Below are positions 7,597 to 23,893 of a stretch of DNA of 37,760 bases, piece after piece (the first letter of the stretch is position 1; each line of letters opens with the position of its first letter). The notes below the pieces were generated by a model that did no database searches, was not told where the DNA came from, and worked only from the letters and a program-made list of their open reading frames with translations. The DNA is from Actinomycetota bacterium (GTDB taxonomy: Bacteria > Actinomycetota > Actinomycetes > Streptosporangiales > Streptosporangiaceae), in the NCBI GenBank assembly GCA_021324595.1, contig JAJPIV010000002.1, forward strand, positions 1 to 37,760. Direction: 5' to 3'. A program made the position numbers and the translations under genes.

Positions 7597-7716
7597 GCAC
7601 CCAGGCGTGTGATGGTTGCCCCCCGCAACGCGGCGCCCTGACCCGCGTCACATCCGCGCATCACTGCCGCCCCGGTGCAGCTGGTCGGCCGGCAGTGTCC
7701 TGGGTCCCGCCGAGCG
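7597..7716 (+). ncRNA. Candidate structured 5' leader
   Basis: The leader between the Crp site and the TTG start contains nested complementary segments. ACCCAGG (7599-7605) pairs with CCTGGGT (7699-7705), and CACTGCCG (7662-7669) pairs with CGGCAGTG (7690-7697), one base inside the first. GTTGC/GCAAC form a hairpin at 7615-7629. GTGATG (7609-7614) can pair with CATCAC (7659-7664), which shares CAC with the 8-bp stem, so those two are mutually exclusive. ACGCGG (7628-7633) with CCGCGT (7643-7648) is a further option. This could be a riboswitch or structured leader. It could also be GC-rich coincidence, since an 8-bp match is expected fairly often in such DNA. Confidence 0.35.
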
Positions 7717-7746
7717 CTCCCACGCGCCCGACCCCGAGGTTCGATC

Positions 7747-8727
7747 TTGCCCCCCCGAATCCCTGATGCAGCACGATCCGTCCTTACCAATTTCAACCGA
7801 TTCATCCGTACCCGCCCTTCCCGGCTCACGCTGGGAGTGGCCGCCGCGACGATCCTGACCGGAGCGACCGTGGCGACCGGGATGGCGGCCACAGGTCACA
7901 CCGCCACGGCGGCGGCCCTCGGCCCGGCCGCCCGGGTGGCGGCTGCCAGCCACGGCCGCGGCGCGGGCCGGGTGCCCGCCGCAGGCTCGGCGGGCCGGCC
8001 GCCCGCGCGGCGCGGCCGGGGGCACCAGCCCCAGCCGGTGAACGCGCCGTCGCACGGCCCGGACCATGGCTCACGGCCCGGCCCGGCTGGGGCTGCCGGC
8101 CGCGCGCCGCAGCGCGGCCAGGCTCCGCGGCCCGCCGGCGCAGGCTCACGGAGCGCCGGGCACCCGGGCCGGCCGGGCGCGGCGCTTCCGGCCCTGGCCT
8201 CAGGTCATCGCGCCGGGCCGGGACGGGTGGCGCCGGCCGGCCGGCCGGGTGCCATCCGCCGCCACCCGGCGGCCCGGCCCCGGCGGCCGTACCTGATCTA
8301 CGACTCCGTGACGCCGGGGGCGATCCCCGGCCACCACGTGATCGCCACCTACGCGACCGGAGGCTACGCGGTCTCGCCCTCGCAGGTCGCCGGCCGGAAC
8401 GTGCTGTGGATCGACACCACCGGCACCGACTACCACGCGTCGATCCTGGATGTCGAGCCCGGTGATGCCACGCCGGCCCAGGCGGCCGTCTGGGCGAGGC
8501 AGCGGTTGTCCGCCTACCCGCACGCGCTGGCCCGCATCTACACGATGCTCTCGCAGTGGCCTGCGGTGAAGGCGTCGATCGCCACCCTCCCGGCGTGGAT
8601 GCGCGCCCGCGTCCGCTACTGGATCGCCGACCCGACCGGCGTTCCGCACGTCGTGCCGGGGTCCGCTGCCACCCAGTGGTACTGGGGCTCGAACTATGAC
8701 ATCTCGACCGCGACCCCGCGGTTCTGA
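7747..8727 (+). CDS. Secreted protein with a conserved C-terminal domain of unknown function
   Basis: The product is about 326 residues with a signal-peptide-like N-terminus (RSRLTLGVAAATILTGATVATG region). A Pro/Arg/Gly-rich linker of roughly 120 residues follows. The C-terminal domain of about 145 residues runs from PYLIYDSVTPGAIPGHHVIATYATG to the end, with DVEPGDATPAQA, WIADPTGVPHVVPGS and ATQWYWG. The DVEPGD and ATQWYW elements recall glycoside-hydrolase-like TIM barrels of the DUF1906 or GH25 sort, but I do not claim an activity. I chose TTG at 7747 (GAGG 8 nt upstream) because no ATG or GTG lies near the signal peptide; GTG at 7675 would sit inside the leader. A perfect Crp site lies upstream. 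Confidence 0.75.
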   Translation: MPPRIPDAARSVLTNFNRFIRTRPSRLTLGVAAATILTGATVATGMAATGHTATAAALGPAARVAAASHGRGAGRVPAAGSAGRPPARRGRGHQPQPVNAPSHGPDHGSRPGPAGAAGRAPQRGQAPRPAGAGSRSAGHPGRPGAALPALASGHRAGPGRVAPAGRPGAIRRHPAARPRRPYLIYDSVTPGAIPGHHVIATYATGGYAVSPSQVAGRNVLWIDTTGTDYHASILDVEPGDATPAQAAVWARQRLSAYPHALARIYTMLSQWPAVKASIATLPAWMRARVRYWIADPTGVPHVVPGSAATQWYWGSNYDISTATPRF

Positions 8728-8995: not shown

Positions 8996-10022
8996 TGGTC
9001 CAGCCCGGTCTGGTTCTTGGCCCCGGCGGGGCAGTCCCCGGCCGCCCAGCGGGCCCCGGCGGCGGCGGCGAGCTCGGCCAGGGTGGTCCCGGGCGGGGCG
9101 AAGCAGCGGGAGAACGCCAGCTCAAGGCCGCCCTTCTCGCCCGGCGCCAGGGACCGGCGGATCAGCAGCTGATGGCCGGGGGCGGCGGTGCCGGCCAGCG
9201 CCCAGTCATGCAGCCGCGGCCCCTTCGAGCCGTCGGCGCAGGACAGCCGCTGCCAGCGCGGGCCGGCACGAGCGCGGCGAGCGCGTCCGCGCGGAACGGC
9301 CCCGCCGGGACGCCGGCCGGCTCGCCGCACGCGACGGCCATCACGGAGCAGATGCCTTCTTCCTCCAGCCAGGACCGCGGGCCCGGGTTGCCGCCGTACA
9401 CCTCGTCGCCCGCGACCCAGCCGGACGGCACGCCCGCCGCCACGGCCCGGGCGATCATCTTCCGCGCCAGCTCCGGCTTGGCCGCGAACCCCACGTCACC
9501 GCCGGTCCCCGCCGCCCGGCACCGGCCCCGGCCGCCGGCCCGCTTGTCCGGCAGGTACAGCTCCCGGCCGGTCAGCGCCCGGCTCCCGGCCGGCGCGGCG
9601 CACGACAGGAACACCCCCACCTGGCAGTTCTCCACCCGGCCCGCCGTGCCCGTGCACATCCGGGCCACGCCGGCCGGCATCTCCCCCTCCTTCACGAACC
9701 CCGCCTCGCCGGCCGCCAGCACCGCGCCCGGATCCCCCAGGTGCCGGGCCACGTAACGCGACAGGGCGTCCCGGCAGGCATCCTCGCCCCACGGCGAGAA
9801 GCTCAGCAGCCGCTGCGGCCCGTCCGGCGAGGCGCCCCCGGCCAGCTCCGCCAGCATCCACCCGTTCCTCCGCTCAGACCGCGACAGCAGCCCCAGCAGG
9901 AACGCCCGCCCGCGCCACCGCACCACCACGCTCCCGAACCCGCCCGCGACCCGCGCGAACAGCTCATCAAAAGACTCCGGCCACGCGGCATGCGCCTCAG
10001 CACCCCCGCACCCGCGCCTCAC
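8965..10022 (-). pseudogene. IS701-family transposase, frameshifted and truncated
   Basis: The product aligns with DDE transposases of the IS701 group: GRAFLLGLLSRSERRNGW, then LARKMIARAVAAGVPSGWVAGDEVYGG, then AAGARWAAGDCPAGAKNQTGLDHYQ. Three lesions are visible. The first catalytic Asp (usual VDETGF) is replaced, the sequence reading AGEAGF. A frameshift near 9260-9275 splits the reading frame, the first part being at 9162-10022 and the second at 8965-9330. The C-terminal 70-80 residues after GLDHYQ are missing, replaced by the PAP2 fragment. I found no terminal inverted repeats. It is a dead insertion sequence. Confidence 0.85.
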
Positions 10023-10358
10023 CCGCGACAGGCAGCAAGCACCGATCCCGGCCGGCCAGGACGATCAGATCACGCAGCCACGCCCACCAATATCACGGCA
10101 CGCTGCTGTAGTAATAGACCTGTGAGCCAGGAACGGTGGCCGTCCCGGAATCCGCGCCAGGCGCGAACATATCGGCAGGCACAAAAGTCATTAGCGGCGC
10201 GATGGGGGGTGGAGAAGTACACCAAGGAGCAAGCCGCCCAGCCAGCCCACCTGCCCGCTGGCCCACCGCCACGCCCACGGATCTGCGTACCTAGCGGTTA
10301 CGGGCCAGGGACGAGCCTGACCGTAGCCACGCGCTGGTGGCCCGTTACGATCGAAAGC
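10023..10358. other. Gene-free stretch upstream of the DUF5661 gene
   Basis: This 336-nt region between the divergent transposase remnant and the DUF5661 gene holds no gene I can support. It is less GC-rich than its surroundings (for example around 10090-10200), which fits inserted DNA. A short minus-strand frame (10093-10278) resembles nothing I recognise. I could not find an IS end or target duplication here. Confidence 0.4.
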
Positions 10359-13919: not shown

Positions 13920-13967
13920 GTTCAAAGTTGCGAAGCAACTCAATTTCTATGAGCTGGACTTTCTTGG

Positions 13968-14042
13968 TCGGGATGGCGGGATTCGAACCCGCGGCCTCCT
14001 GCTCCCAAAGCAGGCGCGCTCACCAAGCTGCGCCACATCCCG
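13968..14042 (-). tRNA. tRNA-Pro(TGG)
   Basis: A complete cloverleaf can be folded on the minus strand: acceptor stem CGGGATG/CATCCCG, D arm GCGC/GCGC, anticodon stem CCTGC/GCAGG with loop TTTGGGA (anticodon TGG), T arm GCGGG-TTCGAAT-CCCGC and discriminator A. CCA is not encoded. An integrase remnant lies just beyond its 3' end, so the gene served as an integration target. Confidence 0.95.
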
Positions 14043-14152: not shown

Positions 14153-14223
14153 GCGGGCGTAGCTCAATGGCAGAGCTCCAGCCTTCCAAGCTGGTGGTGC
14201 GGGTTCGATTCCCGTCGCCCGCT
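14153..14223 (+). tRNA. tRNA-Gly(TCC)
   Basis: A complete 71-nt cloverleaf: acceptor GCGGGCG/CGCCCGC, D arm GCTC/GAGC, anticodon stem CCAGC/GCTGG with loop CTTCCAA (anticodon TCC), T arm GCGGG-TTCGATT-CCCGT and discriminator T. CCA is not encoded. The 3' part, from the anticodon arm on, is duplicated at 15056-15100 as the far end of an integrated element. Confidence 0.96.
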
Positions 14224-14230
14224 CCGAGGG
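14186..14230 (+). repeat. Attachment-site direct repeat, tRNA copy
   Basis: This 45-bp segment covers the anticodon arm to just past the tRNA-Gly 3' end and is identical to 15056-15100. It is the att half that restores the tRNA gene after integration. Confidence 0.9.
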
Positions 14231-14242
14231 TGAAGGCCCAGG

Positions 14243-15028
14243 TCAGGACGTGTGCCCCGAGCCTGGGCCTTCGTGGCCTCGCGGTTGTTCGGGCCGTCGT
14301 GCCATTGGCGTGCCACTAGCTGGCCGCGCCATCAGGTCACGCAGCCCGGCACCGCTGTTCGCGGCAAACTGGTTGCCGGTGTGGCGAAGGTCGTGGAAGT
14401 GCAGTCCCGGCATGCCGATCGCCTCGACCGCGTGCGGCCACCCGGCCAGCTTGCGGAAGTTGCCGCGCCTGATCGGCCCGCCCATGACGCCGGGGAACAC
14501 CAGCGCGCCCGGGTCGTCCTGGACGTACGCCGCCAGGTGGCGTCGCAGGTCCGGGATGATCGCGGCCGGGATGCCGACGATGCGCCGCCCCGCCTTCGAC
14601 TTCGGCGGGCCGAGCACCAGTGGCCCAGTAGAGCGCTCCACGTACACGGCCCGGATACGCACGGTGCGCGCTTGCAGGTCGACGTCCGCCCGGCGCAGCG
14701 CGGTGACTTCGCCCCAGGGCAGGCTGGCGAAGGTGGCGAGCAGCACCAGCGCGCGGAACCGCTGGTCTCGCGTGTTGTCGGCGCGGCCGGCGCCGGCCAT
14801 CTTCCACAGTGCTTGCTCTGCCTCCGCCCGGGTGGGGTAGCGCTCCGGTGAGGTCCGCATGCCGCCGTCCCGGCCGAACCCGAGCCGGTACCCGTCCGGC
14901 GTCTTGCGGATGTTCCCGACCGGCCGCATGCCGACCCGGTCGGCCAGGTCGAAGACCTGGCGGACGGTCAGGACAGGCCGCTCTGCGGCGCGCTCGTCAC
15001 CGGCGCCCTGGGCAACACTGCTGGCCAC
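14243..15028 (-). pseudogene. Tyrosine-recombinase integrase, inactivated
   Basis: The 261-residue frame has the catalytic-domain landmarks of actinobacterial AICE/phage integrases: FASLPWGEVTALRRADVD, GPPKSKAGRRIVGIP, GALVFPG, GPIRRGNFRKLAGWPHAV and LHFHDLRHTGNQFAANSGAG. It is dead by two criteria. The box I Arg (usual SLRWGE) is Pro (SLPWGE), and after LRDLMAR the box with the second catalytic His/Lys region and the nucleophilic Tyr (usual MGHDSxRAALIYQH) is replaced by unrelated residues. The N-terminal DNA-binding part is also missing, since full-length relatives have about 400 residues. The HxxR motif is intact. Its 3' end lies 20 bp from tRNA-Gly. Confidence 0.85.
14299..14318. repeat. 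Arm-type repeats beside the tRNA-Gly att site
   Basis: GTGCCATTG (14299-14307) and GTGCCACTA (14310-14318) form an imperfect direct repeat with an 11-bp period, within the integrase 3' end and about 70 bp from the att core. Such GTGCCA repeats are typical arm-type sites next to attP in this integrase class. Role inferred. Confidence 0.5.
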
Positions 15029-17296: not shown

Positions 17297-18076
17297 CTAC
17301 AGGCGCACCGTGAACCACCTGGTGGCCAGCCCGACCCCGCCGCGCCAGATCTCGAAGCCCGCCTCGACGCTCACCATCCACCAGCTCCGCCTGACCAGCC
17401 CGGCGCGCTCCGCGGCCTTGATGAACGGCAGCACGTCGAGGTTCCTCACGCGCTTCGCCGAGCGGACCATGCGGAACTGGATGTAGTTCCACCGCTTGCC
17501 GTGCCTGGCGGCCACCCAGTGGGCCAGGTGGTAGCGGCGGCCGCCGACCGTGACCACGGGCCAGGCGTTCGGCGGGAATCCGCGCGAGTTGAGCCAGATC
17601 ATCAGCTCCGCGCCGCCGCTCTGCCCGGAGGTGCTGCGCCTCCTGTCGAGCCAGATGTCGTACCCGGCGCTCCAGTGGCCGGAGGCGGACTGGACGGTGG
17701 ACCACGAGGTCACCAGCGTCCTGATCCGGTCCACCCGCCTCGGCAGGCCGCTGCGCGGCGAGCAGACTCCCCAGCTGCACCCGAGGAAGATGTTCGGATA
17801 GGCGACCGGCTCGGCCGGGTTCCCGTGGGCGCCGGACTTCGAGATCCTGAAGTCCGGCAGGTCATCCACGTTCACGAGGCACTCGCTGCGGTGGCCGAAC
17901 GTGTCGTTCCTGACCACGTACCGCGGCCCGCGCCCCGCCGCCGTCGTCAGGTGCTGGAACGGCCTGCACAGCACGCGCTCGTGCGACGACGGCGGCCTCG
18001 CCTGCGCCGAGGCGACCGCGGCCACCGTGGCTCCCAGAGCCGCCGCCGACACCACCTTGAGCAGCCCCCCGGCCAT
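17297..18076 (-). CDS. Secreted glycoside hydrolase family 12 (endo-beta-glucanase-like)
   Basis: This 259-residue secreted enzyme has a signal peptide (GLLKVVSAAALGATVAAVASAQA). GH12 enzymes cut beta-1,4-glucan or xyloglucan. Landmarks are NIFLGCSWGVCS (95-106), SASGHWSAGYDIWLD (130-144), the nucleophile Glu157 in ELMIWLN, and the acid/base Glu242 in EAGFEIWRGG. The length is that of a single catalytic domain with no binding module. ATG at 18074 has GGAGGGGAGGGAC just before it. It lies 93 nt downstream of a secreted paralogue on the same strand and may be co-transcribed with it. Action on plant or algal cell-wall glucans is inferred from the family. Confidence 0.88.
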   Translation of the reverse strand: MAGGLLKVVSAAALGATVAAVASAQARPPSSHERVLCRPFQHLTTAAGRGPRYVVRNDTFGHRSECLVNVDDLPDFRISKSGAHGNPAEPVAYPNIFLGCSWGVCSPRSGLPRRVDRIRTLVTSWSTVQSASGHWSAGYDIWLDRRRSTSGQSGGAELMIWLNSRGFPPNAWPVVTVGGRRYHLAHWVAARHGKRWNYIQFRMVRSAKRVRNLDVLPFIKAAERAGLVRRSWWMVSVEAGFEIWRGGVGLATRWFTVRL

Positions 18077-18169
18077 GTCCCTCCCCTCCTGCGCCGGCCA
18101 CCATCTTCGCCAAGATGACTGCGGGCCCGCGCGCCGACACGCTCCGGGCGCGCGCATCCCCCCGGGGTT

Positions 18170-19012
18170 TCACGAGCCGGGCAGCCCGCGGACGAATGCG
18201 AACAGCTGGCCGGGCACCGCCGTCCGGCCGGCCAGATTCAGCCTGGCCAGCCGCAGCTGATCCGCGGGAGCGTGGCTGAGAGCGTCGACGGCCAGCACGA
18301 ACGGGCTGCGGAAGTTGCTGTCCGCGGCGCTGATCCACGGGCACCAGGAGCCGGCCGCGCGGCACGGTCCCGTCCCGCTGGCCCGGTCCGCGATCCAGAG
18401 CGTGCGGGCGTCCTGGCCGCAGGGCCGCAGGGTGACGTTCTCGCCGTCCTGACCGCGCACCGCCACGCCGACGCACAGGTCGGTCTGGTTGCCGAACGGG
18501 GTCCAGGCCAGCTCGAAGACCCAGTCGTCCCACTCGCGCCGGCACAGGTAGGAGGCGGGCGGGAACATGTCATGGCTGTCCGTGCCGCAGAACTGCCAGA
18601 CCCGCGCCGTCAGCGAGACCGAGAACTCACCGCTCGGGTGCGTGATGCCCTTGAACAGCATGTCGATCTTCCGTCCCACCCGGCCGCTGGCCATCGACTG
18701 GACGGGCAGGTCGGCGTTCATCGTCATCCGGTCGCCGAGCGCGAGGCTGGCCAGGGTCAGGCAGTCCGGGCCGCAGGACGCCACGCTCCGTGACCAGGCC
18801 GGGCCGGCCACGGCCGCCCGGCCCGCCGCCGCGTGCCCCTCCTGATGCCGGGCGGCCCACGGCGGGTCCGCGTGCGCGCGCCCGGCCGCGTGAACCGCGG
18901 CGGCCAGCCCGCGCGGGCCTGCGAGCAGCACGGCGCCGAGCGCGGCCACCGTCAGGGCGGCGCCCGCCAGGGCGGCCGCCCGCCGGACCGGTCGCGATGA
19001 TCCTGCGCGCAT
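18170..19012 (-). CDS. Secreted Cys-rich protein of unknown function (paralogue B)
   Basis: This is a 280-residue exported protein. ATG at 19010-19012 has AAGGAG 6 nt upstream; a signal-anchor-like segment (AAALAGAALTVAALGAVLLAG) follows a short basic start. The mature part aligns throughout with the neighbouring gene at 19239-20036: GRVGRKIDM, ARVWQFCG, ASYLCRR, GENVTLRPCG, LWIADR, WCPWI, then DQLRLARLNL. Six Cys occupy the same positions (QFCG, YLCR, LCVG, RPCG, PCRA, WCPW), suggesting three disulfides. An extra SCGPDC pair lies near the start of the domain. No enzyme motif is recognised. It precedes the GH12 gene by 93 nt. Confidence 0.8.
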   Translation of the reverse strand: MRAGSSRPVRRAAALAGAALTVAALGAVLLAGPRGLAAAVHAAGRAHADPPWAARHQEGHAAAGRAAVAGPAWSRSVASCGPDCLTLASLALGDRMTMNADLPVQSMASGRVGRKIDMLFKGITHPSGEFSVSLTARVWQFCGTDSHDMFPPASYLCRREWDDWVFELAWTPFGNQTDLCVGVAVRGQDGENVTLRPCGQDARTLWIADRASGTGPCRAAGSWCPWISAADSNFRSPFVLAVDALSHAPADQLRLARLNLAGRTAVPGQLFAFVRGLPGS

Positions 19013-19173
19013 CCTCAGCTCCTTCAGCCCGCGGCGAGCGCCGCGATCCGCACGTCTGATCACACGATGTTAGCCATTGATATCTGTACGTAGTCGCAGC
19101 TCCGCCAAATCGGCTTGCGAAAGGCCGCGTGACGGCGCCGGCCGGGCGCGGCGCGAGGGGCCGCGAGACGGGA

Positions 19174-19207
19174 ACGGCCCCTCCCCGGCGCGCCGGGGAG
19201 GGGCCGT
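19174..19207 (-). terminator. 17-bp palindromic terminator
   Basis: A perfect palindrome with 17-nt arms (19174-19190 and 19191-19207) starts 32 nt after the stop of the gene at 19239. Because there is no spacer, the innermost bases form the loop. It likely ends that transcript, separating the two paralogues into different units. Confidence 0.75.
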
Positions 19208-19238
19208 CGCCGCGGGCCGGCGGGCCCAGCGGCTTAGG

Positions 19239-20036
19239 TCACGGCGTGGCGCCGAGGTAGAACGCGAACTGCTGGTCGTTCCGGGCGACGCCGCCCACCA
19301 GGTTCACGTTCTCGATCCTCAGCTGGTTGACCGGGCGCTGGGTGCCCGCGTCGAGGGTGAGCACGAGCGGGTGGCTGAACTTGGTGTCGCCGCCGTTGAT
19401 CCACGGGCAGAAGTTGGCCGGGCCCCCGGGAGCCACCGGGATCGTGCTCGGCGTCCGGCAGTCACCGCCGTAGCCGAGCACGCGGTCGGCGATCCAGACC
19501 GTGTTGGCGCTGACCCCGCAGGGCTGGAGCGTGACGTTCTCGCCGTCGTACGGCGCCATCGTCGTGTCCACGCCGGCGCACAGGCCCGACTCGTTCCCGT
19601 ACGGCGACCAGTCGGCCTCGATCACCCAGAACCCCGGGTAGTGGAGGCAGACGTAGGAGGTCGGCGAGAAGAAGTCGTTCGCGGACCCGCCGCACAGCTG
19701 ATACACCCGGGCGACGATGTCGGTCATGAAGTCGCCGTTCGGGCGGGTGTTCGAGGCGAAGTGCATGTTGACCTTCTGGCCGACCCTGCCGTCGGCGATG
19801 CTGCCGGTGTCGCCGGGCACGTAGGCGTTCGCGGTCGTCCCTGAGCCGAGCACGTCGCTGAACAGGTTGAAGCAGAAGAGCAGCAGGCTCGGATCCTGGC
19901 TCGCCGCGCACTGCGGCGTGCCCGCCCTCGCCTGGGTGGACGCGCTCGCCGTGCCCGCGCCGGCCACGCCCAGGCCGATCGCGAGCGTGGCCGCCGCCGT
20001 AGCCGCGTAGAACGCCCGCGTGAAGCGCTTGCGCAT
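19239..20036 (-). CDS. Secreted Cys-rich protein of unknown function (paralogue A)
   Basis: This 265-residue exported protein has a clear signal peptide (MRKRFTRAFYAATAAATLAIG followed by VAGAGTASA). ATG at 20034-20036 is preceded by AAGGAA with 6-nt spacing. The domain contains GRVGQKVNMHF, ARVYQLCGG, TSYVCLHYPGFWVIEADW, GENVTLQPCG, NTVWIADR, FCPWING and NQLRIENVNLVGG. Six Cys are shared with its neighbour at 18170. The strand-rich pattern with NVTLQPCG and VWIADR looks like a beta-sandwich or lectin-like protein, but I recognise no named family. It has its own leader and terminator. The adjacency to GH12 hints at an extracellular polysaccharide context. Confidence 0.82.
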   Translation of the reverse strand: MRKRFTRAFYAATAAATLAIGLGVAGAGTASASTQARAGTPQCAASQDPSLLLFCFNLFSDVLGSGTTANAYVPGDTGSIADGRVGQKVNMHFASNTRPNGDFMTDIVARVYQLCGGSANDFFSPTSYVCLHYPGFWVIEADWSPYGNESGLCAGVDTTMAPYDGENVTLQPCGVSANTVWIADRVLGYGGDCRTPSTIPVAPGGPANFCPWINGGDTKFSHPLVLTLDAGTQRPVNQLRIENVNLVGGVARNDQQFAFYLGATP

Positions 20037-20440
20037 AACGTGTTCCTTCCTGTCGATGCCGCCGCTGCGATCCGGTGGCTTGGGCGGTCAAGCCACCCGG
20101 ACTGCGGCTCAAGAACCATGGCTGGCACAGGTAGCGCTCGGTGATCCCGCCCTGCCAGTTCACTACGCGACGTTACCACGAAGCTGCGCAGCGTAATCAG
20201 AATCCAGGCGCGATTCCCCCGCTGATCTTCGGCATCAACAAACCGCCTCGTTCCGTTCCTGGTCATTCATCCCGCCGCAGTCACGGCGACCCGGCGCAGC
20301 CGGCGCGCCCGCCGGGCCGCCGGGCGCCGGCGGGCACGCACGCCCGGGGCCGCTGCCGTACCGTGGATGCCTGCCGTGCCGTGCCCGGGCGGGTGAGGTC
20401 TGCCGCCGCCGGGGGCAGCGCCAGGAGAGGAACCGCGACA
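20037..20440. promoter_or_regulatory. Divergent intergenic region with a leader hairpin
   Basis: These 404 nt separate paralogue A (minus) and the siderophore-interacting gene (plus). GGTGGCTTG (20074-20082) and CAAGCCACC (20089-20097) form a perfect 9-bp hairpin with a 6-nt loop in the minus-strand leader, 38 nt before the ATG. The middle (about 20150-20270) is less GC-rich and should hold both promoters, but I cannot assign hexamers safely. No iron-box-like palindrome is evident in front of the plus gene. Confidence 0.4.
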
Positions 20441-21235
20441 GTGACCGACGCAGTGCCCCCCGAGATCCGCAGCCGGCTGGACGACCCGTTCCGCGAACTG
20501 GCCGGCCCGCTCGCGGGGGCGCGCAGGCTGAGCTTCACCGTGGCCGCCTCGGAGCGGATCTCCCCGGCGGTCCACGAGGTGATGCTCACCGCGCCCGAGC
20601 TCGACGGCTTCGGCTACCAGCCGGGCCAGGACGTGATGCTGCTCGTGGCGGCCGAGGGCGCCCGGCCGGTCCGGCGCCGCTACACGATCCGATCGCTGGA
20701 CCGCGGCGCGCCCGCCCTCAGGCTGCACATCGTCCGGCACGCCGGCGGCCCCGGCGAGCGCTGGGTGAGATCGGCGCGGCCCGGCGACCGGATCGAGGGC
20801 ATCGGCCCGCGCGGGAAGATCACGATCTCGCCCGGAGCCGACTGGCACCTGTTCCTGGGCGATGAGTCCGCGATGCCGGCGATCTTCGCGATGACCGAGG
20901 CACTCCCCGGGGACGCGGACGCCACCCTGGTGATCGAGGTGCCCGGCCCGGCAGACGAGCAGGAGCTGCTGGCGCCGGCCCGCACCAGGGTGAGCTGGCT
21001 GCACCGGCTCGGCCGCCCGGCCGGGGACCGCGCCCTGCTGACCGCCGAAGCCGCCGAGGTCGAGCTGCCACCCGGAGCCGGGCACGCCTACGTGCTCGGC
21101 GAGGCGCGCGTGGTCCTCGCCGTGCGGGAGGTCCTGGCCGCGCGCGGCCTGCCGCCGGGCCAGATCTCGGCGAAGGCGTACTGGGGCCGCGGCAGGGCCA
21201 ACGCCGGTCACGGCGAGCCACCGCGGGATGCCTGA
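20441..21235 (+). CDS. Siderophore-interacting protein (FAD-dependent ferric-siderophore reductase type)
   Basis: The 264-residue protein belongs to the SIP/ViuB flavoprotein family, which reduces ferric siderophores in the cytoplasm to release iron. The FAD-binding barrel has YQPGQDVMLLV followed by RRRYTIRSLD (the RxYT motif). The second domain has the family motif GDESAMPAIFAM and ends with ISAKAYWGRGRANAGHGE, the usual C-terminal YWRxGRxN region. GTG at 20441 is preceded by AGGAGAGG at 10 nt. The upstream open frame is non-coding in character. No siderophore genes or transporter are nearby and no IdeR/DmdR-type site was found, so the siderophore partner is unknown. A hairpin follows. Confidence 0.92.
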   Translation: MTDAVPPEIRSRLDDPFRELAGPLAGARRLSFTVAASERISPAVHEVMLTAPELDGFGYQPGQDVMLLVAAEGARPVRRRYTIRSLDRGAPALRLHIVRHAGGPGERWVRSARPGDRIEGIGPRGKITISPGADWHLFLGDESAMPAIFAMTEALPGDADATLVIEVPGPADEQELLAPARTRVSWLHRLGRPAGDRALLTAEAAEVELPPGAGHAYVLGEARVVLAVREVLAARGLPPGQISAKAYWGRGRANAGHGEPPRDA

Positions 21236-21250
21236 CCCTTGCCGGGACCT

Positions 21251-21281
21251 GGTGCCGCCCGGGCGCCGGCCCGGTGGCACC
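21251..21281 (+). terminator. Hairpin after the siderophore-interacting gene
   Basis: GGTGCC (21251-21256) pairs with GGCACC (21276-21281), enclosing CCGGGC/GCCCGG with a small internal mismatch, 15 nt after the stop. It is a likely terminator. Confidence 0.55.
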
Positions 21282-21369
21282 AAGGAAGTCCATTCCCTCC
21301 CGCCGGGAGAGCGAATGTTTCATACTGATCGGGACGGTTCAGGGGCAATGCTGGAGGGGAGTCCCCCAC

Positions 21370-23445
21370 GTGGTGTCGGCAGCGGCGGCCGAGATGTCGG
21401 CCGTCCTCTCCAGCGCCTCGGCGCAGACGCTGACACTGGGGATCGACCGGGGCGGCCGGGTCGTTCAGCATGACCGCAGCGCCGCGGACGTCCTCGCCGC
21501 GGGCGGCGACGGGCTGCTCGGCGCCGGCCTGGGCGCTCTGATCGCCGGGCCCGGCGACCCGGACGAGCTGGTCCGGGGCATCATCGACGCCGCGAGCGCG
21601 GACCGGGACAGCACCTCCGTGCTGACCATCCGCACCACCAGCCGGGCCACCGTCGACGCCGTGGCGACGATCGTGCCGGTCCGCTCGCTCGGCACCGGGC
21701 TGCTCGCGCAGGTGACGCTCCGCGTCCCCGCTCCCGCCGCCGAGCGCTTCATCGACCCGGCCCTGATGCGCCACGCCCTGCTCGACGGCGCGGTGCGGCG
21801 GATCGGAGGCGCGCTCGACATCGAGCAGATGGCCCCCGAGCTGGTCAACATCCTCGTCCCGCACTTCTGCAACTCGGCGGGCCTGCTCATGCTGGAGAGC
21901 ATCGTGGCCGACGCCGAGCAGCCCCAGTCGCCTCCCAGCGGCCTGCACCTGGTCCGCCGCCTGGCGGTCGCCCACGACGACGCCGACCCGGGCTGGGACG
22001 CCGCGTTCCCCGTGGGAGAGATCCTGCGCTACCCGCCGGGCACCCCTTACACGCGGTGCCTGGACGGCGCGAAGCCGGTGAGCGAGGTGCTGGACGACGC
22101 CGCGGCAGCCGGCCTGGCGGCGGCGTGGTCGCGCGCGCCGGTGGCCCGGCTGCTCGCCGGGGCGTCGCTGCTGCTGCTGCCCATGATCGCCGGCGAGACG
22201 CTGCTCGGCTTCTTCGCCTGCGCCCGCCGGCTCGGCTTCCACCGCTTCGACGCCTACGACGTCGAGATCGGCATGGAGTTCGCCCGCCGCGCCGCGCTGT
22301 TCGTCGACAGCGCGCGCCGGTACAGCAGGGAGCGGGCCACGGCGCTGACCCTCCAGCGCAGCATGCTGCCGACCGGCCTGTCCACGCCGGCCTCCGTCGA
22401 GGTCCGCCACCGGTACCTGCCGGGCAGCAAGCTGATCGAGGTCGGCGGTGACTGGTACGAGTCGATCGCGCTGCCGGGCGGCCGGGTCGCGCTGGTCGTG
22501 GGCGACGTGGCGGGCCACGGCGTGCGCGCGGCCGTGACGATGGGCCGGCTCCGCACCGCGATCAAGACGCTGACCATGCTCGAGCTGCCCGCGGCGGAGA
22601 CCCTGCAGCGCCTCGACGACCTCATGCACGAGCTCGGCGAGGTCGAGCCGCACTTCGCGACCTGCGTGTTCGCGATCTACGACACCGTGGACGGCACGTG
22701 CGAGGTCGCCTGCGCCGGCCACCTGCCGCCGCTGCTCGTCGCGCCCGGCAAGGCCGGGGAGTTCCTCGACGTCTCGCCGGCCCCGCCGCTCGGGATCGGG
22801 GCGAGCCCGATCCGCAGCCGCACGCTCACGGTCGAAGATGGCAGCCTGCTGGTGATGTACACCGACGGGCTCGTGGAACGGCGGACCGAGGACATCGACA
22901 CCGGCCTGCGGGGCCTGCGCGAGATGTTCACGCCCGGAGCGTCCGAGCGCCCGCTGGATGACCTGTGCCGCGACGCCCTGGCCAGGGCCGGCGTCTACGA
23001 CGACCACCAGCGGGACGACATCGCGCTGCTGATCGCCCGGCTGAGCAGGATCGACCAGGAGCGGCAGGTCGCGTGGAACCTCGCCGCCAAGCTCACCGCC
23101 GCCAGGCGGGCGCGGTCGCTGATCCGCCGCCCGCTGCGCAGGTGGGGGCTGGCGGACGTCATTCCCACCGCGGAGCTGGCGGTCTCCGAGCTGGTAACCA
23201 ACGCGGTCAGGTACGCGCAGGGCAGGATCGGGCTGCGCCTGGTGCTGGAGGGCGGGCTGTTCTGCGAGGTGCTCGACGACTCCGCCGCGCTGCCGAGGCT
23301 GCGCCACGCCGGCGAGGATGACGAGCGCGGCAGGGGCCTTCAGGTGGTGAGCCAGATCGCTCAGCGCTGGGGGACCCGCCGCACCGCCACCGGCAAGGTG
23401 GTGTGGTGCGAGCTGGCCGTGCCCGGCGCGCCCGGCTGCGGCTGA
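21370..23445 (+). CDS. SpoIIE-type PP2C phosphatase with GAF-like and HATPase domains
   Basis: This 691-residue soluble regulator combines a phosphatase and an anti-sigma-like kinase module. Residues 1-130 form a PAS-like region. About 140-320 is GAF-like. The PP2C/SpoIIE domain (about 330-560) has VGGDWYES (358-365) and GDVAGHGVRAA (378-388) with the metal-binding Asp residues, and MYTDGLVERR and DDIALLIAR further on. The C-terminal ATPase domain (about 565-691) has ELVTNAVRYA (from 607) and GRGLQVVSQIA, like RsbW/SpoIIAB. Such proteins control partner switching between anti-sigma factors and antagonists. GTG at 21370 is 8 nt after GGAGGGGAG. No cognate anti-sigma antagonist lies next to it, but bldC follows. 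Confidence 0.92.
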   Translation: MVSAAAAEMSAVLSSASAQTLTLGIDRGGRVVQHDRSAADVLAAGGDGLLGAGLGALIAGPGDPDELVRGIIDAASADRDSTSVLTIRTTSRATVDAVATIVPVRSLGTGLLAQVTLRVPAPAAERFIDPALMRHALLDGAVRRIGGALDIEQMAPELVNILVPHFCNSAGLLMLESIVADAEQPQSPPSGLHLVRRLAVAHDDADPGWDAAFPVGEILRYPPGTPYTRCLDGAKPVSEVLDDAAAAGLAAAWSRAPVARLLAGASLLLLPMIAGETLLGFFACARRLGFHRFDAYDVEIGMEFARRAALFVDSARRYSRERATALTLQRSMLPTGLSTPASVEVRHRYLPGSKLIEVGGDWYESIALPGGRVALVVGDVAGHGVRAAVTMGRLRTAIKTLTMLELPAAETLQRLDDLMHELGEVEPHFATCVFAIYDTVDGTCEVACAGHLPPLLVAPGKAGEFLDVSPAPPLGIGASPIRSRTLTVEDGSLLVMYTDGLVERRTEDIDTGLRGLREMFTPGASERPLDDLCRDALARAGVYDDHQRDDIALLIARLSRIDQERQVAWNLAAKLTAARRARSLIRRPLRRWGLADVIPTAELAVSELVTNAVRYAQGRIGLRLVLEGGLFCEVLDDSAALPRLRHAGEDDERGRGLQVVSQIAQRWGTRRTATGKVVWCELAVPGAPGCG

Positions 23446-23564: not shown

Positions 23565-23683
23565 ACAACAAGTAGCCGTAATGTCTTCCTAAGCTTGACG
23601 GGTTTATGCTTCAATAGTCGCGATTATGATCGTTCGTGGATCTTGCCTGGTCCGTGGACGATCGTGGGGAGGAATCGGTCGAT
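23565..23683 (+). promoter_or_regulatory. bldC promoter and leader region
   Basis: This is one of the lowest-GC stretches of the window. It contains TTGACG at 23595-23600, TATGCT, and TATGAT near 23623-23628; no pair has the ideal 17-nt spacing. GATCGT and ACGATC flank a possible leader stem. The region ends with GGGGAGGAA before the ATG at 23684. The promoter is inferred from composition and partial motifs. Confidence 0.35.
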
Positions 23684-23893
23684 ATGAGCACCAGCCGGCA
23701 GGCACCAGAGTTCACCAGGCTCCTCACCCCGGCCGAGGTCGCCGCGATGTTCCGCGTGGATCCCAAGACCGTCACCAGGTGGGCCAAGGACGGCAAGCTC
23801 ACGTCCGTCCGCACGCTGGGGGGCCACCGCCGGTACCCGGAGGCCGAGGTCCGGGCGCTGCTCGACCAGATCAGCAACTCATCCCGCCCGTAG
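23684..23893 (+). CDS. bldC: BldC-type MerR-like DNA-binding regulator
   Basis: This 69-residue protein is almost entirely a MerR-like winged helix: LLTPAEVAAMFRVDPKTVTRWAKDGKLTSVRTLGGHRRYPEAEVRALL. It closely matches BldC of Streptomyces, a small DNA-binding protein that binds direct repeats cooperatively and controls the timing of development. TVTRWAKDGKL is the recognition helix and GGHRRY the wing. ATG at 23684 is preceded by GGGGAGGAA at 6-7 nt. An in-frame upstream start would add a non-conserved lead. It is monocistronic. The preceding SpoIIE-type gene may act in the same developmental programme, which is an inference from proximity only. Confidence 0.93.
   Translation: MSTSRQAPEFTRLLTPAEVAAMFRVDPKTVTRWAKDGKLTSVRTLGGHRRYPEAEVRALLDQISNSSRP

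What the first reader, a model, noticed from the sequence alone, without database searches (positions are those of the whole stretch)
17297..20036. Tandem secreted Cys-rich paralogues beside a GH12 glucanase
Seen: two exported proteins of 280 and 265 residues align over their whole mature length with six Cys in matching positions. They precede a secreted GH12 enzyme on the same strand. One pair (B and GH12) is close enough to be co-transcribed; the other has its own 17-bp palindromic terminator. Neither matches a family I know. Inference: they could bind or modify polysaccharide together with the glucanase, or be extracellular structural proteins. This is the best candidate for an undescribed functional set in the window.
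Basis: partly seen in the sequence, partly recalled or inferred. Interest (0 to 1): 0.6.

Follow-up and report, generated by a model that had tools for sequence, protein, structure and literature searches.

The report
Paired secreted trefoil-like proteins beside glucanase
Two neighbouring secreted bacterial proteins, next to a cellulose-type sugar-cutting enzyme, belong to an unnamed family that looks like a far-diverged relative of plant lectins without the lectins' usual sugar pocket; whether they help the enzyme is unproven.

Summary
A (265 aa) and B (280 aa) are real, export-type paralogues (43% identity over 208 aa) with eight matching cysteines, not six, followed by a genuine GH12 with both catalytic glutamates. 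A-B-GH12 is conserved at one site in three genus members, each with a long hairpin between A and B. In a fourth member the GH12 stands at that site without A or B. In the other 21 of 24 family loci examined no GH12 was found in the stretch fetched (many short contigs). No library searched names the family. Profile searches point to one fold only, the ricin-B/CBM13 beta-trefoil, through repeats 1 and 2; repeat 3 is weak. In repeat 2 the classical sugar-site Asp and aromatic are absent from 29 of 29 members, but ordinary ricin-B domains of the same genus have largely lost them too. My reading: non-enzymatic secreted binding proteins on a divergent trefoil scaffold. Fold about 0.8, glycan or surface binding about 0.5, working partnership with GH12 about 0.2. 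Structure prediction failed, so the fold rests on sequence profiles. A modestly interesting unnamed family in a genus-level neighbourhood.

The parts
19239..20036 (-). Gene A: export-type 265-aa member of the unnamed trefoil-like family; eight cysteines (43, 55, 115, 130, 153, 173, 193, 210)
   Evidence: ORF and translation; paralogy with B; cysteine columns
18170..19012 (-). Gene B: export-type 280-aa paralogue of A; eight matching cysteines
17297..18076 (-). GH12 enzyme, 259 aa, export-type, only one Pfam domain; glutamates of the two catalytic motifs at residues 157 and 242
   Evidence: Pfam PF01670 1.1e-15; PDB cellulases/endoglucanases E down to 2.9e-39; motifs
19174..19207 (-). 17-bp perfect palindrome between A and B, likely 3' end hairpin of A
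   Evidence: hairpins of different sequence lie in the same gap in G002 and G003
18077..18169 (-). 93-bp B-GH12 gap without notable structure; co-transcription plausible here
   Evidence: fold z = 0.84; gap size
20438..21235 (+). Siderophore-interacting FAD-binding protein gene (start placed by likeness to relatives), divergent neighbour that anchors the site
   Evidence: Pfam SIP 2.3e-31; same neighbour in G001, G002 and G003
21274..23445 (+). SpoIIE-type phosphatase with ATPase domain, second anchor of the site
   Evidence: Pfam SpoIIE 4.9e-50; same neighbour in G001, G002 and G003

Best explanation
A and B are secreted, disulfide-held, single-domain proteins on a diverged ricin-B/CBM13-type beta-trefoil scaffold, and act by binding rather than catalysis. 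The most likely target is an extracellular glycan or the cell surface. Binding would use a family-specific surface, for example around the conserved SN..P..DF and E....P.G stretches, since the usual pocket residues of repeat 2 are absent. In this genus an A/B tandem sits between a siderophore-interacting protein gene and an export-type GH12 that has no binding module of its own. In the window B and GH12 may share a transcript, while A is set apart by its own hairpin and so can be made in a different amount. Shown: paralogy, export-type N-termini, conserved order in three genomes, hairpin in the A-B gap of all three, profile similarity to ricin-B repeats 1 and 2, absence of the repeat-2 sugar-site residues. 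Inferred: the fold, binding, termination and co-transcription, any help given to GH12.
For: Family profile against the PDB: the five matches with E up to 10 are all lectin or B chains of the ricin-B type (type from recall), best 0.0029. Pfam at E up to 1: 6 of 29 members hit Ricin_B_lectin, best 1.8e-5. hhalign against 19 Ricin_B domains from relatives: E 1.6e-4, 0 of 100 column shuffles as good. Repeat 1 alone E 0.0035, 0 of 100; repeat 2 alone E 2.4e-5, 0 of 100. One member carries the domain ahead of He_PIG and IPT/TIG domains. A-B-GH12 in G000, G002 and G003. A-B gap hairpins in these: z -3.8, -6.1, -4.6.
Against: A and B themselves give no Pfam hit at E up to 10. Of 10 members scanned at E up to 10, four touched Ricin_B_lectin: one at 1.8e-5, the others at 0.076, 0.16 and 0.28; all below the cut-off. 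hhalign's own probabilities are modest: 51% whole, 76% repeat 2, 9% repeat 1. Repeat 3 matches only at its Q.F motif (1 of 100 shuffles as good), and the repeats barely match each other. The AlphaFold model from six sequences failed, pLDDT 34. The repeat-2 Asp-equivalent is G, S or A in 29 of 29 and the aromatic-equivalent is never aromatic, which argues against classical lectin activity. G003 has a hairpin right after B (z -3.7, 0 of 200). G001 keeps the GH12 without A and B.
Confidence: 0.5

Rival explanations
1. A and B are trans-acting binding partners of the GH12 (detached carbohydrate-binding modules): they hold the substrate or the cell and raise GH12 activity on insoluble polysaccharide.
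For: The GH12 shows only one Pfam domain; order and strand conserved in three genomes; no notable structure in the B-GH12 gap of the window or G002; remote CBM13-type similarity.
Against: GH12 without A and B at the same site in G001; 21 of 24 family loci without GH12 in the stretch fetched; co-occurrence not significant; hairpin after B in G003; repeat-2 sugar-site residues absent.
Confidence: 0.2
2. A and B are extracellular structural or spore/cell-surface proteins; the GH12 neighbour is incidental.
For: Tandem paralogues at other sites in other genera; eight matching cysteines in A and B; fusion to Ig-like domains in one relative; neighbouring SpoIIE-type phosphatase.
Against: No second membrane-like stretch in A or B; no direct evidence for a surface location.
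Confidence: 0.2
3. The similarity to ricin-B is local convergence around a disulfide-linked strand pair, and the family has another all-beta fold.
For: The strongest match covers one repeat; the aromatic positions taken as repeat marks (F103, W181, F257) lie 76-78 residues apart, while ricin-B repeats are about 50 (passage of PMC11212257); model failed.
Against: Repeat 1 alone also aligns to a ricin repeat, 0 of 100 shuffles as good; no other fold appears in the PDB list.
Confidence: 0.2

Closest known systems
Ricin-type beta-trefoil lectin domain (Pfam PF00652) / CBM13
   Same: Profile similarity over repeats 1 and 2; Cys-Cys pair, V.L..C and .W pattern in repeat 2; export-type proteins
   Different: Below Pfam cut-off; repeats carry DF, T.W and Q.F instead of three Q.W; family-wide Cys pair only in repeat 2; Asp and aromatic of the repeat-2 sugar site absent; roughly 220 mature residues against about 130 (PMC11212257 table); stand-alone
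Glycoside hydrolase family 12 (PF01670; solved relatives 3wx5, 2bw8, 1h0b, 1nlr)
   Same: The third gene: above cut-off, both glutamate motifs, export-type
   Different: An ordinary member with one Pfam domain; substrate not predictable from these data
Third paralogue C in the same genome (G000:C3, L003/L054)
   Same: 46% identity to A; one clade with copies in G002, G003 and G004 (95/97) that lie near the same reductase-like gene (by eye)
   Different: Not beside a GH12; lacks the two extra cysteines of A and B

Membership tests
GH12 (PF01670) | Score above the curated cut-off | tested here: met
   58.7 bits against a cut-off of 27
GH12 (PF01670) | Nucleophile and acid/base glutamates | tested here: met
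   GAELMIW Glu157 and AGFEI Glu242; both motifs in 8 of 8 GH12 sequences compared; the roles of the two motifs are recalled
Ricin_B_lectin (PF00652) | Score above the curated cut-off | tested here: not met
   A and B: no hit at E up to 10; best relative 25.4 bits against 29
Ricin_B_lectin (PF00652) | Three repeats, each with a QxW motif and two cysteines (as described in passages of PMC11212257) | tested here: not met
   Repeat 1 D/E-F or D-W, repeat 2 mostly T.W, repeat 3 Q/E.[FW]; family-wide within-repeat Cys pair only in repeat 2
Ricin_B_lectin (PF00652) | Profile likeness to the repeat unit | tested here: met
   Repeats 1 and 2 better than 100 of 100 column shuffles, repeat 3 better than 99 but only over 10 columns; hhalign probability of the whole 51%
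Ricin_B_lectin (PF00652) | Beta-trefoil fold | tested here: inconclusive
   AlphaFold model pLDDT 34; no fold search run on it
CBM13 | Sugar-site Asp and aromatic (recalled) | tested here: not met
   Repeat 2: Asp-equivalent G 25, S 3, A 1; aromatic-equivalent Q 17, R 5, E 4, V 2, G 1 of 29. But 8 of 8 ordinary ricin-B domains from the own genus also keep at most one C.D motif, against three or more in 10 of 11 from other genera
CBM13 | Module joined to a CAZyme | tested here: not met
   A and B are single ORFs without any Pfam domain
CBM13 | Reversible carbohydrate binding | not testable with these tools
   needs purified protein

The most novel reading that the evidence does not exclude
A and B are founding examples of an undescribed actinobacterial trefoil family that binds polysaccharide through a new site and, in this genus, serve as detached, separately dosed binding modules for a GH12 without a module of its own, with A made in a different amount through the recurring A-B hairpin.
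Probability: 0.12. Interest if true: 0.5.

Novelty: new variant of a known kind. Interest (0 to 1): 0.3.

Why it matters
An export-type family that matched nothing above cut-off in Pfam, NCBIfam or PHROGs, found mainly in genomes of one actinobacterial family, is tied here to a known binding scaffold whose standard sugar-site residues are missing. If it binds glycans through a new site, it would be a new kind of carbohydrate-binding protein. The G001 genome, with the GH12 but neither A nor B at the same site, offers a natural comparison.

Tried and rejected
Structure: AlphaFold with six sequences gave pLDDT 34, so no fold search was run and the second job was not used.

Rejected: chance pairing of A and B; LPXTG pilin (NCBIfam E 0.036 over residues 3-42 only, far below its cut-off); a phage family (no PHROG match in 29 members; no phage record with one family member as query; no viral contig relative); obligate partnership with GH12.

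Not settled: whether G001 lost A and B or never had them. GH12 and the siderophore-interacting protein put G001 as close to the window as the others or closer (62% and 76%), but SpoIIE puts it furthest (69-71% against 74-75% among the other three). In one search the G002 SpoIIE was read in a wrong frame; one search repeats it in the right one.

Absence outside the GTDB family is not established. The phylum sample found only the own genome among 396, but it scored few candidates per genome, and a Streptomyces plasmid holds a relative. The sample of 101 genomes around G061 was empty and held no positive control.

Rows dropped: alignment A5 uses 29 of the 33 family rows. Left out were L044 (about 100 residues inserted), the two frame-split pieces of L049, and the 94-residue fragment in L051. 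The ricin set is 19 of the 31 loci, chosen for completeness.

Names given by eye, without a search: S9 peptidase, methyltransferase, reductase, Nudix, PHP, MarC, BldC-like.

Full report
The window is one whole contig (C100) of a 4.09 Mb actinobacterial genome of 168 contigs. Three minus-strand genes were checked. A (19239-20036) and B (18170-19012) encode 265 and 280 residues, and the third (17297-18076) encodes 259. All three have a ribosome-binding stretch (by eye) and a hydrophobic N-terminal segment.

A and B are paralogues: 43% identity over 208 residues, E 6e-56. Eight cysteines match: A 43, 55, 115, 130, 153, 173, 193, 210; B 80, 84, 142, 157, 180, 198, 217, 224. Only four positions run through the family: 43 and 55 in 28 of 29 members, 153 and 173 in 29 of 29. 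Positions 193 and 210 are Cys in 6 and 7 members. A third copy, C, lies on contig C3 of the same genome at 46% identity to A. Copies of C in G002, G003 and G004 form one clade with it and lie near the same reductase-like gene (by eye).

The third gene is a plain GH12: Pfam 1.1e-15, above cut-off, solved cellulases/endoglucanases down to E 2.9e-39, and both glutamate motifs in 8 of 8 GH12 sequences compared.

Site conservation. In G002 and G003 the same order stands beside the same siderophore-interacting protein and SpoIIE-type phosphatase genes. In G001 those two genes and the GH12 (62% identical to that of the window) are present, but A and B are not: 221 bp separate the matching stretches in G001 against 2467 bp in the window, and no family member was found in G001 (81% complete). 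In G004 (77% complete) the siderophore-interacting protein's orthologue was not found. Whether G001 lost A and B or never had them is open: GH12 and SIP place G001 close to the window, SpoIIE places it furthest. Assembly error cannot be excluded.

Hairpin. Between A and B the window has a 17-bp perfect palindrome; its stretch folds with z -3.8, 1 of 200 shuffles as good. G003 and G002 have long hairpins of unrelated sequence in the same gap, z -4.6 and -6.1, 0 of 200 each. The B-GH12 gap shows nothing notable in the window (z 0.84) or G002 (z 1.52). In G003 the two pieces of that gap give z -1.65 and -0.55, but a shorter 10-bp hairpin directly after B stands out when folded alone (z -3.7, 0 of 200). 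Co-transcription of B and GH12 is thus plausible in two genomes and doubtful in the third. There is no T-run and the consensus scan found no terminator, so termination is inferred.

Spread. Counting the own genome, the family was found in 11 of 100 relatives, 15 of 297 genomes of the same GTDB family, and only the own genome of 396 in the phylum sample (few candidates scored per genome). Of 24 loci examined, 7 hold two or three copies in tandem and 3 have a GH12 (maps); several contigs are short. A Streptomyces plasmid holds a relative (45% to a non-genus member) with no GH12 seen within about 8 kb on either side (genes judged by eye). GH12 occurs in 26 of the 100 relatives. Within the family part of that sample, 7 of 11 genomes with the trefoil-like family have GH12 against 17 of 50 without it, p = 0.09; leaving out the genus, 4 of 7 against 16 of 49, p = 0.23. 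In a tree of 29 members B is one clade (98/91), A plus B one clade (99/97) and C one clade (95/97); G002's A is placed unsurely. The B clade suggests that the tandem is older than the split of G000, G002 and G003.

Identity. No Pfam, NCBIfam or PHROG family covers A or B above a cut-off. A profile of 29 members against all PDB sequences returns five matches with E up to 10, all lectin or B chains of ricin type (type from recall): 0.0029, 0.0093, 0.016, 0.018 and 0.9. At E up to 1, six of 29 members touch Pfam Ricin_B_lectin, best 1.8e-5 but below its cut-off; of ten members listed singly, the others that hit had E 0.076, 0.16 and 0.28. Against 19 ricin-B domains taken from relatives, hhalign gives E 1.6e-4, score 31.3, probability 51%, with a best of 15.7 in 100 column shuffles and 15.1 for the reversed profile. 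Cut into pieces, repeat 1 alone scores E 0.0035 (probability 9%) and repeat 2 alone 2.4e-5 (76%), 0 of 100 shuffles each; repeat 3 reaches only its Q.F motif (1 of 100). Repeats compared with each other match poorly: 1-2 E 0.0086 (1 of 100 shuffles as good), 1-3 15 of 100, 2-3 85 of 100. I take a diverged beta-trefoil as likely, about 0.8.

Sugar site. In repeat 2 the Asp of the CLDV motif is G, S or A in 29 of 29 members and the aromatic before the second Cys is never aromatic. That these residues bind sugar in ricin is recalled knowledge. This loss is not peculiar to the family: among the 19 ordinary ricin-B domains, 10 of 11 from other genera keep three or more C.D motifs, but 8 of 8 from the own genus keep at most one, and 6 of 8 have no aromatic two places before a Cys. 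What sets A and B apart from those is the further loss of Q.W and the wider spacing. Passages of PMC11212257 read through the find function describe the domain as three repeats of about 50 residues with QxW and two cysteines each; A and B do not meet that. Near-invariant D102, E140, P145 and invariant G147 mark where a different site might lie; that is conjecture.

Function. Export-type N-termini, cysteine pairs, trefoil similarity and one relative fused to He_PIG and IPT/TIG domains point to a binding role. Partnership with GH12 is possible but rests on one genus and is weakened by G001 and by the hairpin after B in G003. Paper searches (listings and starts of abstracts only, apart from the passages named above) on GH12, ricin-type or beta-trefoil terms and actinobacteria listed no paper whose title or abstract start describes this family; they do not prove there is none.

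Noticed in passing
window 14246-15028 (-), tRNA-Gly 14153-14225 (+), tRNA-Pro 13965-14042 (-): Phage-integrase-family gene (Pfam 2.8e-6) beside two tRNA genes: a possible integration site with remnants.
   Followed up: partly
window 9168-10064 (-): Transposase-like DDE_5 protein (1.2e-25).
   Followed up: no
window 7642-8721 (+): Secreted-looking 360-residue frame without any Pfam match at E up to 0.001.
   Followed up: no
L087 2796-4061 (+): Family domain fused to He_PIG and IPT/TIG domains in another genus.
   Followed up: partly
L044 8253-9449 (-): Family member with an insertion of about 100 residues between repeats 2 and 3.
   Followed up: no
L084, L047, L048, L050, L051: In other genera the family sits by Nudix-, PHP- and MarC-like genes (named by eye), a second recurrent setting.
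   Followed up: no
L094, L095, L102, L104, L112, L113, L114, L122: Ordinary ricin-B lectin domains of this genus keep Q.W motifs but have mostly lost the C.D and aromatic sugar-site residues, unlike those of other genera.
   Followed up: partly
window 23651-23887 (+): Small MerR/HTH_17 regulator, BldC-like by eye, downstream of the SpoIIE-type phosphatase.
   Followed up: no
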